The notes under the pieces are model-generated. The model was not told the DNA's origin. It saw nothing but the letters and a program-made list of their open reading frames with translations, and made no database searches. Shown here piece by piece: positions 12,862 through 13,901 of a stretch of DNA of 64,000 nucleotides. Numbering within the stretch: the stretch's first letter is position 1; every line of letters starts with the position of its first letter. The DNA is taken from assembly GCF_001570585.1 (NCBI RefSeq), contig NZ_BBXF01000006.1:390383-454382 (forward strand), given 5' to 3'. Source of the DNA: Herbidospora daliensis. Lineage in GTDB: Bacteria > Actinomycetota > Actinomycetes > Streptosporangiales > Streptosporangiaceae. The translations under genes and the position numbers were made by a program.

Positions 12862-13641
12862 ATGGCCGAGCGTCAGTCCCGGTGGCGGTTGCCGACCGGC
12901 GTCTACAATCCCGTCGTCACCGGTGACGGGCGCAGGTGGCGTGACTACGAGAAGGCCGCCGAGACCCCCGCGCCGTCCCTCGATCCGTGGCCGTCGCAGT
13001 TGCCGTCCCGGCTGCCGCCGACGGGCGACGACTGGTTCGACCGGGCCTCCCGGCCGCGCCACCTGGAGGAGTCGCGGCCCTACGGGGTGCCGGGCGGGCT
13101 GGCGAGACCCGACCCGGAGGCGCAACGTGATCTCGCCGAGGCGTTGGCCGGCAGGTTCCCCGATCCGCGCGGCACCTGGATCCGGCTGATCAACGCCGAA
13201 GGGCCGACCGACGACCCGTTCCGGTCGACCAACGCCATCGACTGCGCCCTGTCGGTCATGTCGTCGTGGCACGGCGAACCCGTCGTGGCGGCGGCCCGGC
13301 AGCCCGAGTACGACCGGGTGGGCAAACCCGTCCTCTCGGGGGAGGCGGGCGGGGTGGCCAGGGCCGAGCAGTGGCTCGGCCATCGTTTCGAGTACGTCGG
13401 GCAGGGCCGCCGCGCCTACGGGGTGGTGGCCGGGCGGTTGCGGTCGGCCGGGCACGGCGCCGCGACCGTGCTCATCACGCGCTGGCCCCAAGGGGGCAGC
13501 CACGCGTGGAACGCGGTGAACTCACTGGGGGAGGTGCTGTGGATCGACGCACAGCGGGGACACATGGCCATCGAGCCGCCGTACGAGAACGTGACGGGGG
13601 TGTTCTGCGTGGTCCTCGACCGCGCGGGGCAGCGGGTGTGA
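12862..13641 (+). CDS. Toxin-type glutamine deamidase (papain-fold toxin) domain protein
   Basis: A 259-residue soluble protein. The last 150 residues resemble the papain-fold toxin / glutamine deamidase family found in polymorphic toxins. A Cys-His-Asp triad is visible: Cys128 in RSTNAIDCALS, His214 in GGSHAWNAV and Asp229 in LWIDAQRG. The N-terminal 100 residues are Pro/Arg-rich without a signal peptide, membrane span or recognised delivery domain. A GGAAGGGG site precedes ATG 12862. It overlaps the small YrhB-like gene by 4 bp, a toxin-immunity arrangement. Whether it is exported or acts inside the cell cannot be told. Confidence 0.75.
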   Translation: MAERQSRWRLPTGVYNPVVTGDGRRWRDYEKAAETPAPSLDPWPSQLPSRLPPTGDDWFDRASRPRHLEESRPYGVPGGLARPDPEAQRDLAEALAGRFPDPRGTWIRLINAEGPTDDPFRSTNAIDCALSVMSSWHGEPVVAAARQPEYDRVGKPVLSGEAGGVARAEQWLGHRFEYVGQGRRAYGVVAGRLRSAGHGAATVLITRWPQGGSHAWNAVNSLGEVLWIDAQRGHMAIEPPYENVTGVFCVVLDRAGQRV

Positions 13642-13901
13642 GCCCGGACACCGCCCGCGCGCTGGCCGAGGAGTGGTTCAACGGGGGGCGGGCCCGCTCG
13701 GCCGAGGTGGTCGTCTACGCCTTCGACGACGGGTTCGTGGCCTGGGCGCGAGACGACGAGCCCGACGACCCGAGCGTGTTGCCGTCGACCGTCGGGGGCG
13801 GCTGCATCGTCATCGACCGGCGGACCGGCGAACTGGCCGTCCGCCCCCTGCTGGGGCCGGAGTTCGTGGCCGAGCAGTGGCCCGACCACGTGCCCCGTTA
13901 A
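13638..13901 (+). CDS. YrhB/Imm35-like immunity protein candidate
   Basis: The 87-residue protein begins at a GTG overlapping the deamidase stop (GTGA). It has the YrhB-like layout: an N-terminal helix (ARALAEEWFNGG), a central strand pair, then GGGCIVIDRRTGELAVRP. YrhB-like proteins commonly accompany papain-fold deamidase toxins and are predicted immunity proteins. The last bases overlap the stop of the convergent permease gene (13898-13901). The family call rests on pattern and context. Confidence 0.7.
   Translation: MSPDTARALAEEWFNGGRARSAEVVVYAFDDGFVAWARDDEPDDPSVLPSTVGGGCIVIDRRTGELAVRPLLGPEFVAEQWPDHVPR

What the first reader, a model, noticed from the sequence alone, without database searches (positions are those of the whole stretch)
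12862..13901. Compact papain-fold deamidase toxin with YrhB-type immunity partner
The first gene has a Cys128-His214-Asp229 triad in the pattern of toxin glutamine deamidases. The second, overlapping by 4 bp, looks like a YrhB/Imm35 immunity protein. Unlike polymorphic toxins, the effector has no signal peptide, no WXG/PT-repeat delivery part and no secretion locus nearby. A free-standing intracellular deamidase with its own inhibitor could be a toxin-antitoxin-like or phage defence module.
Basis: partly seen in the sequence, partly recalled or inferred. Interest (0 to 1): 0.75.

Follow-up and report, generated by a model that had tools for sequence, protein, structure and literature searches.

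The report
Domesticated dead toxin with immunity-like partner
What looked like a free-standing bacterial toxin with its antidote is a pair of genes kept at one fixed place in the chromosome across many genera of an actinobacterial family, in which the toxin-like protein lacks the usual catalytic cysteine, so it more likely serves the cell as a binding or regulatory protein than as a weapon.

Summary
The two genes are real: 12862-13641 (259 aa) and 13638-13901 (87 aa), 4-bp overlap. Gene 1 matches Pfam PF15644 (Gln_amidase, Tox-PL1) at 112 bits (cut-off 24). In 141 of 141 orthologues position 125 is Ala (134) or Ser (7), while Cys128, His214 and Asp229 are invariant. The locus is syntenic (rdgB upstream, ftsX downstream in 22 of 22 named loci; 24 genera) and under purifying selection. 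Gene 2 is missing from 19 of 141 genomes (two changes on the tree) where gene 1 is kept, which a lethal toxin would hardly allow. Pfam does not call gene 2 Imm35; a distant relation is only suggested. Of three outside genomes with close homologues, two have them inside WXG100-headed giants. In two T7SS loci the immunity protein itself joins Imm35 to a PL1 domain lacking the Cys. Best reading: a domesticated, nucleophile-less toxin domain acting as a binding or regulatory protein, tuned by an immunity-like partner. Toxin-antitoxin or phage defence is unlikely; a relocated nucleophile at Cys128 is not excluded.

The parts
12862..13641 (+). gene 1: 259-aa nucleophile-less Tox-PL1 (PF15644) protein
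   Evidence: PF15644 112.5 bits, aa 123-234; orthologue (E 1e-100 or better) in 141 of 345 genomes of the order
12874..12963 (+). N-terminal conserved motif (GVYNPVVxxDGRRWRDYExAAE), aa 5-34
   Evidence: alignment A3; the orthologues are its only strong matches in 41 genomes, of which the search scored at most 150 candidates each
12964..13032 (+). linker, short here; the distance from motif start to the catalytic region varies from 27 to 468 residues where it could be measured
13033..13611 (+). conserved PL1 unit with its own N-terminal extension (WFDR..RPYG.PGGL..RFPDPRG.W)
   Evidence: predicted helix 125-136, strands 213-221 and 224-229
13234..13236 (+). Ala125, the position of the Tox-PL1 nucleophile
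   Evidence: Ala 134, Ser 7, Cys 0 of 141; Cys in 32 of 35 non-orthologous PF15644 domains whose start was covered
13243..13245 (+).
   Evidence: 141 of 141 orthologues; Cys in 19 of 32 canonical NC domains
13501..13503 (+). His214
   Evidence: 141 of 141
13546..13554 (+). Asp229 to Gln231 (DxQ)
   Evidence: Asp 141 of 141, Gln 140 of 141
13638..13901 (+). gene 2: 87-aa immunity-like partner, GTG start overlapping the gene 1 stop by 4 bp; predicted helix, four strands, helix
   Evidence: 122 of 141 genomes with gene 1 also have it; model pLDDT 79

Best explanation
A domesticated toxin module. Gene 1 is related to the papain-fold (Tox-PL1) domains of secreted actinobacterial polymorphic toxins. 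In this family it is a chromosomal, vertically inherited gene that lacks the catalytic cysteine (Ala or Ser at 125) and keeps the rest of the pocket under strong selection. It most likely works in the cytoplasm as a pseudoenzyme that binds a protein partner through that pocket, tethered by its conserved N-terminal motif and a linker of variable length. The overlapping gene 2, an immunity-like protein, binds it and tunes its availability or stability, and is dispensable in some lineages. Shown: family, missing nucleophile, conservation, synteny, overlap, absence of gene 2 from 19 of 141 genomes, no recognised delivery domain. Inferred: descent from a secreted toxin, cytoplasmic location, physical interaction of the two proteins, binding function; the partner is unknown.
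For: Position 125 Ala/Ser in 141 of 141; C128, H214 and D229 invariant, Q231 140 of 141. NC Cys present in 32 of 35 other PF15644 domains. rdgB upstream and ftsX downstream in 22 of 22 named loci. dN/dS 0.10-0.20 for gene 1 in six Herbidospora comparisons, like rph and rdgB. Gene 2 absent from 19 of 141 genomes, two changes on the tree. N-terminal motif with no other strong match. Helix starting at residue 125 in the model. In Cpe1, a different papain-like toxin, changing the nucleophile Cys to Ala abolishes toxicity (PMC12136450, passages).
Against: His, Asp and Gln are almost perfectly kept, which is unusual for a plain pseudoenzyme, and Cys128 is kept in 141 of 141 although the second Cys is present in only 19 of 32 canonical domains, so it may be doing something. 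No binding partner is known. The model has mean pLDDT 68 (the five models 48.5 to 68.1), Foldseek gave no PDB match below E 0.001, and no coordinates were available to measure distances.
Confidence: 0.58

Rival explanations
1. Relocated nucleophile: the protein is still an enzyme, with Cys128, one helical turn after the old position, acting with His214 and Asp229, and gene 2 is its inhibitor. It would be a core-genome protein-modifying enzyme.
For: C128, H214 and D229 in 141 of 141, Q231 in 140 of 141; Cys at that place in only 19 of 32 domains that have the NC Cys.
Against: The predicted helix 125-136 starts at residue 125, so 128 lies inside the helix, away from the usual oxyanion-hole position (inference). 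Absence of the presumed inhibitor is tolerated in 19 genomes.
Confidence: 0.15
2. Standing decoy immunity: a split form of the T7SS immunity architecture Imm35 plus PL1 without nucleophile. The pair protects the cell against incoming PL1 toxins by competing for target or toxin.
For: In L285 and L286 a T7SS_signal plus PL1 (NC) gene lies next to a gene joining Imm35 domains to PL1, whose first PL1 domain has Ala at the nucleophile position. The own genome has no other PF15644 match, so there is no internal PL1 toxin of this family to guard against.
Against: Those PL1 domains are only 23-26% identical to gene 1 and fall on another branch of a quick tree with many weak forks. Slow evolution and wide fixation do not look like an arms race. 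Gene 2 reaches Imm35 only weakly.
Confidence: 0.13
3. One reading: an active intracellular deamidase toxin with cognate antitoxin, a toxin-antitoxin-like or phage-defence module.
For: PF15644 match; 4-bp overlap possible in 20 of 21 named loci with gene 2; Zhang et al. 2012 link Imm35 specifically to Tox-PL1 (PMC3482391, passages).
Against: Nucleophile absent in 141 of 141; gene 1 kept without gene 2 in 19 of 141; fixed synteny; no PADLOC match; no phage or viral relative of gene 1 found; the only hit in the plasmid collection is an 11.85-Mb Nonomuraea record.
Confidence: 0.05
4. Decaying relic of a polymorphic toxin without function.
For: Missing nucleophile and no delivery part.
Against: 52 of 225 positions identical in at least 140 of 141 orthologues; dN/dS 0.10-0.20; no stop inside the match in the 141 genomes.
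Confidence: 0.02

Closest known systems
Tox-PL1 / Gln_amidase (PF15644)
   Same: Profile match at 112 bits over the whole domain; His and DxQ kept
   Different: Nucleophile Cys replaced by Ala or Ser; no secretion domain; fixed chromosomal locus
Internal PL1 domains of WXG100_2-headed giants (L128, L129)
   Same: Same unit including the upstream GGL...DP segment; 33 and 42% identity over the core
   Different: Those have NC and lie inside 1858- and 1356-aa proteins; L128 also has a sub-threshold XOO_2897 deaminase match near its end. Zhang et al. read internal PL1 domains as likely releasing peptidases (passages)
Imm35 (PF15567)
   Same: Small partner next to a PL1 gene; hhalign prob 59, E 9.2e-5 for a widened set
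   Different: No Pfam match; the close orthologue set alone gives prob 0.9
T7SS immunity proteins joining Imm35 to PL1 (L285, L286)
   Same: Combine Imm35 domains with a PL1 domain lacking the nucleophile
   Different: Fused, beside a toxin with NC, and the Gln is lost too (in L285 also the His)
Teneurin/Odz C-terminus, inactive GHH toxin domain (PMC3482391, passages)
   Same: Precedent for a toxin domain kept in inactive form for another role
   Different: Animal protein, nuclease-type domain, extracellular signalling
Cpe1-Cpi1 papain-like toxin and immunity protein (PMC12136450, passages)
   Same: Papain-like Cys-His-Asp toxin with a small partner
   Different: Active protease with its Cys, delivered by secretion pathways; relation by sequence not tested here

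Membership tests
Tox-PL1 / PF15644 | profile score above Pfam gathering cut-off | tested here: met
   112.5 bits, cut-off 24.1
Tox-PL1 / PF15644 | NC nucleophile of the NC-H-DxQ signature | tested here: not met
   Ala/Ser in 141 of 141
Tox-PL1 / PF15644 | His and DxQ | tested here: met
   H 141, D 141, Q 140 of 141
Tox-PL1 / PF15644 | papain-like fold | tested here: inconclusive
   AlphaFold2 pLDDT 68; Foldseek best AvrPphB E 4.2e-3, then MCF, with VASH1, RavD and unrelated folds further down; none below 0.001
Tox-PL1 / PF15644 | glutamine deamidase or peptidase activity | not testable with these tools
   needs biochemistry
Polymorphic toxin | N-terminal delivery domain | tested here: not met
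   Pfam finds only PF15644 in gene 1; outside homologues carry WXG100_2 or T7SS_signal
Polymorphic toxin | rapid turnover and patchy distribution | tested here: not met
   fixed synteny 22 of 22; dN/dS 0.10-0.20; but present in only 24 of 70 genera sampled in the order
Imm35 (PF15567) | Pfam profile match | tested here: not met
   0 of 28 members; own genome 0
Imm35 (PF15567) | profile-profile similarity | tested here: inconclusive
   prob 59, E 9.2e-5 with A6; prob 0.9 with A2
Imm35 (PF15567) | adjacent to a PL1 domain | tested here: met
   122 of 141 genomes with gene 1 have gene 2; start/stop overlap possible in 20 of 21 named loci
Toxin-antitoxin / phage defence | toxin not kept without antitoxin | tested here: not met
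   19 of 141 genomes have gene 1 but no gene 2 match at E 0.001; seven loci read
Toxin-antitoxin / phage defence | known defence profile or mobile occurrence | tested here: not met
   PADLOC none; phages none for gene 1; viral contigs none for either alignment by a pattern scan
Toxin-antitoxin / phage defence | toxicity relieved by partner | not testable with these tools
   needs expression tests

The most novel reading that the evidence does not exclude
The catalytic cysteine has moved one helical turn, from the family's NC position to Cys128, giving a core-genome papain-fold enzyme with a new active-site geometry, held in check by an overlapping immunity-like inhibitor: a toxin turned into a resident protein-modifying regulator across many genera of an actinobacterial family.
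Probability: 0.15. Interest if true: 0.75.

Novelty: new variant of a known kind. Interest (0 to 1): 0.52.

Why it matters
Polymorphic toxin domains are known mainly as weapons. Here one appears fixed in the chromosome of 24 genera of one family, with its nucleophile gone, its pocket kept, and its immunity-like partner missing from some lineages. That makes the domestication of a bacterial toxin domain testable, and shows that a PF15644 match should not be read as a glutamine deamidase toxin without checking the nucleophile.

Tried and rejected
Shared trafficking domain: the N-terminal motif was searched in 41 genomes (at most 150 candidates scored in each); strong matches are the orthologues, next best E 0.0015 in G037. 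T7SS substrate: no WXG or T7SS_signal match in gene 1. Mobile or phage origin: gene 1 gave nothing in phages and one hit in the plasmid collection, an 11.85-Mb record; A1 and A2 gave nothing in viral contigs by a scan with two peptide patterns each; gene 2 was not searched in phages or plasmids. Gene 2 as PepSY: 8 of 28 members, best E 0.0028, too weak. PDB by sequence: nothing for the single proteins; profile A4 reaches 6u8t PfhB2 at E 0.0014; A2 gives nothing significant. Literature: the searches listed no paper whose title or abstract start describes a Tox-PL1 without nucleophile in this family; only open-licence papers are held and the listed papers were not read beyond the three cited. 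The Fisher test used an early count (11 of 17) and is not relied on.

Full report
The locus. Gene 1 runs 12862-13641 (+, 259 aa) and gene 2 13638-13901 (+, 87 aa) with a GTGA overlap. The host genus is inferred to be Herbidospora: the six same-genus genomes match at the same contig positions as six named Herbidospora records, 93-98% identical to gene 1. By Pfam, upstream lie an acyl-CoA thioesterase, an Asp/Glu racemase, a metallo-beta-lactamase fold protein, RNase PH, a Ham1 protein (rdgB in my labels) and a molybdopterin oxidoreductase; downstream on the other strand an FtsX-type permease, an ABC ATPase, a response regulator and a histidine kinase.

Family of gene 1. Pfam gives one family, PF15644, at 112.5 bits over aa 123-234; NCBIfam and PADLOC give none. 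I equate PF15644 with Tox-PL1 of Zhang et al. 2012 from the shared motif and from PMC10318531 (passages), which cites that work for Gln_amidase and says it may act as a releasing peptidase or a poison. Zhang et al. (PMC3482391, passages) give the signature NC-H-DxQ, say that most versions are toxins and some internal ones likely releasing peptidases, and link Imm35 specifically to Tox-PL1.

The nucleophile. In canonical homologues the motif often reads NCxDC; here it reads NAxDC. I examined all 141 genomes of the order whose gene 1 match was E 1e-100 or better, of 345 searched; the other 13 of the 154 matching genomes have weak matches and were not counted. Position 125 is Ala in 134 and Ser in 7; Cys128 in 141; His214 in 141; Asp229 in 141; Gln231 in 140, Leu in G212. 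Of 47 non-orthologous PF15644 matches in a class sample of 246 genomes, I read the 35 that begin at profile position 3 or earlier: 32 have the NC Cys; the exceptions are L147 and L148 (fused to Imm35) and L287 (partial). The second Cys is present in 19 of those 32.

Structure. AlphaFold2 on 29 orthologues gave mean pLDDT 68 and pTM 0.69 for the best of five models, with a helix at 125-136 and strands at 213-221 and 224-229. Ala125 is thus the first residue of that helix, where papain-like enzymes carry their Cys (general knowledge). Foldseek against the PDB had no match below 0.001; the top were AvrPphB (4.2e-3) and MCF (0.022), then an unrelated protein, VASH1 and RavD. This supports a papain-like fold only weakly. 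Distances could not be measured.

Distribution and selection. The 141 orthologues lie in 24 genera, all of one family of the 70 genera sampled in the order. In 22 of 22 named loci rdgB lies upstream and ftsX downstream; the oxidoreductase was not found in L046 and gene 2 not in L047. Within Herbidospora dN/dS of gene 1 is 0.10-0.20 in six comparisons, near rph (0.09-0.17) and rdgB (0.09-0.20) and below ftsX (0.26-0.52); gene 2 is 0.05-0.37. In a sample of 396 genomes of the phylum only three besides the own one had a match at 1e-10, in frames of 1361 aa or more; that search scored only a few candidates per genome, so weaker relatives can be missed.

Absence of the partner. Gene 2 has a match of E 1e-29 or better in 122 of the 141 genomes. 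The 19 without a match at 0.001 are all 15 of genus g68, and G126, G242, G243 and G349. In the seven of these whose surroundings I fetched, gene 1 sits after rdgB in 7 of 7 and upstream of ftsX in 6 of 7, with Cys128, His and Asp intact. For NEAU-GS5 (L047; G126 by the contig length and position) a permissive search of its genome gave a best E of 0.10. On the gene 1 tree the absence needs two changes, which I read as losses (its bootstrap had not settled). G126 lies on a long branch (0.8), which may mean relaxed constraint there.

Gene 2. A 4-bp overlap is possible in 20 of 21 named loci with gene 2; L054 is the exception. No Imm35 match; a widened set reaches an Imm35 set at hhalign prob 59, E 9.2e-5, the close set only prob 0.9. 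Distant relatives form the N-terminus of about 440-aa proteins (five loci); the two scanned (L106 and the one in L128) have XOO_2897-deaminase and SUKH-4 domains. The model has pLDDT 79 and the order helix, four strands, helix; it could not be compared with solved structures. I call it immunity-like, not Imm35.

Relatives that bear on the origin. L128 and L129 are WXG100_2-headed giants with an internal NC-type PL1 domain. L130, whose frame runs to the contig end, has two PL1 domains and a RelA_SpoT match near its C-terminus. Gene 1 shares their upstream segment. In L285 and L286 (genus g50) a T7SS_signal plus PL1 gene with NC lies upstream of a gene joining Imm35 to PL1, whose first PL1 domain has Ala at the nucleophile position; in both the Gln is lost, in L285 the His as well. 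In genus g82 five loci carry an NA-type PL1, about 150 aa if the internal start is used in two of them, with a partner that can start 4 bp before the stop in 5 of 5. On a quick tree of 43 domains the missing Cys needs two changes.

Reading. The evidence favours a domesticated, nucleophile-less toxin domain kept for binding or regulation. It does not exclude catalysis by Cys128, whose invariance is the strongest point against a plain pseudoenzyme, nor a decoy-immunity role. An active toxin-antitoxin or phage-defence module is the least supported of the functional readings.

Noticed in passing
L051, L052, L059, L093-L098: The stretch between the conserved N-terminal motif and the catalytic region grows to several hundred residues of low-complexity sequence in some genera, while both ends stay conserved.
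   Followed up: partly
L105-L109: Proteins of about 440 aa with a gene 2-like N-terminus, in genomes without a gene 1 match; the one scanned (L106) has XOO_2897-deaminase and SUKH-4 domains.
   Followed up: partly
L130:4258-8751: A frame of 1497 aa, possibly cut by the contig end, with two PL1 domains and a RelA_SpoT match near the C-terminus, which fits PL1 as a releasing domain in front of another toxin.
   Followed up: no
L284:302-886: G108 has a second, short PL1 protein with the NC motif, and an Imm35 match about 0.5 kb downstream.
   Followed up: no
L099-L103: In genus g82 the NA-type PL1 with overlapping partner lies near a gene that looks by eye like a serine/threonine kinase in four of five loci (no profile search made).
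   Followed up: partly
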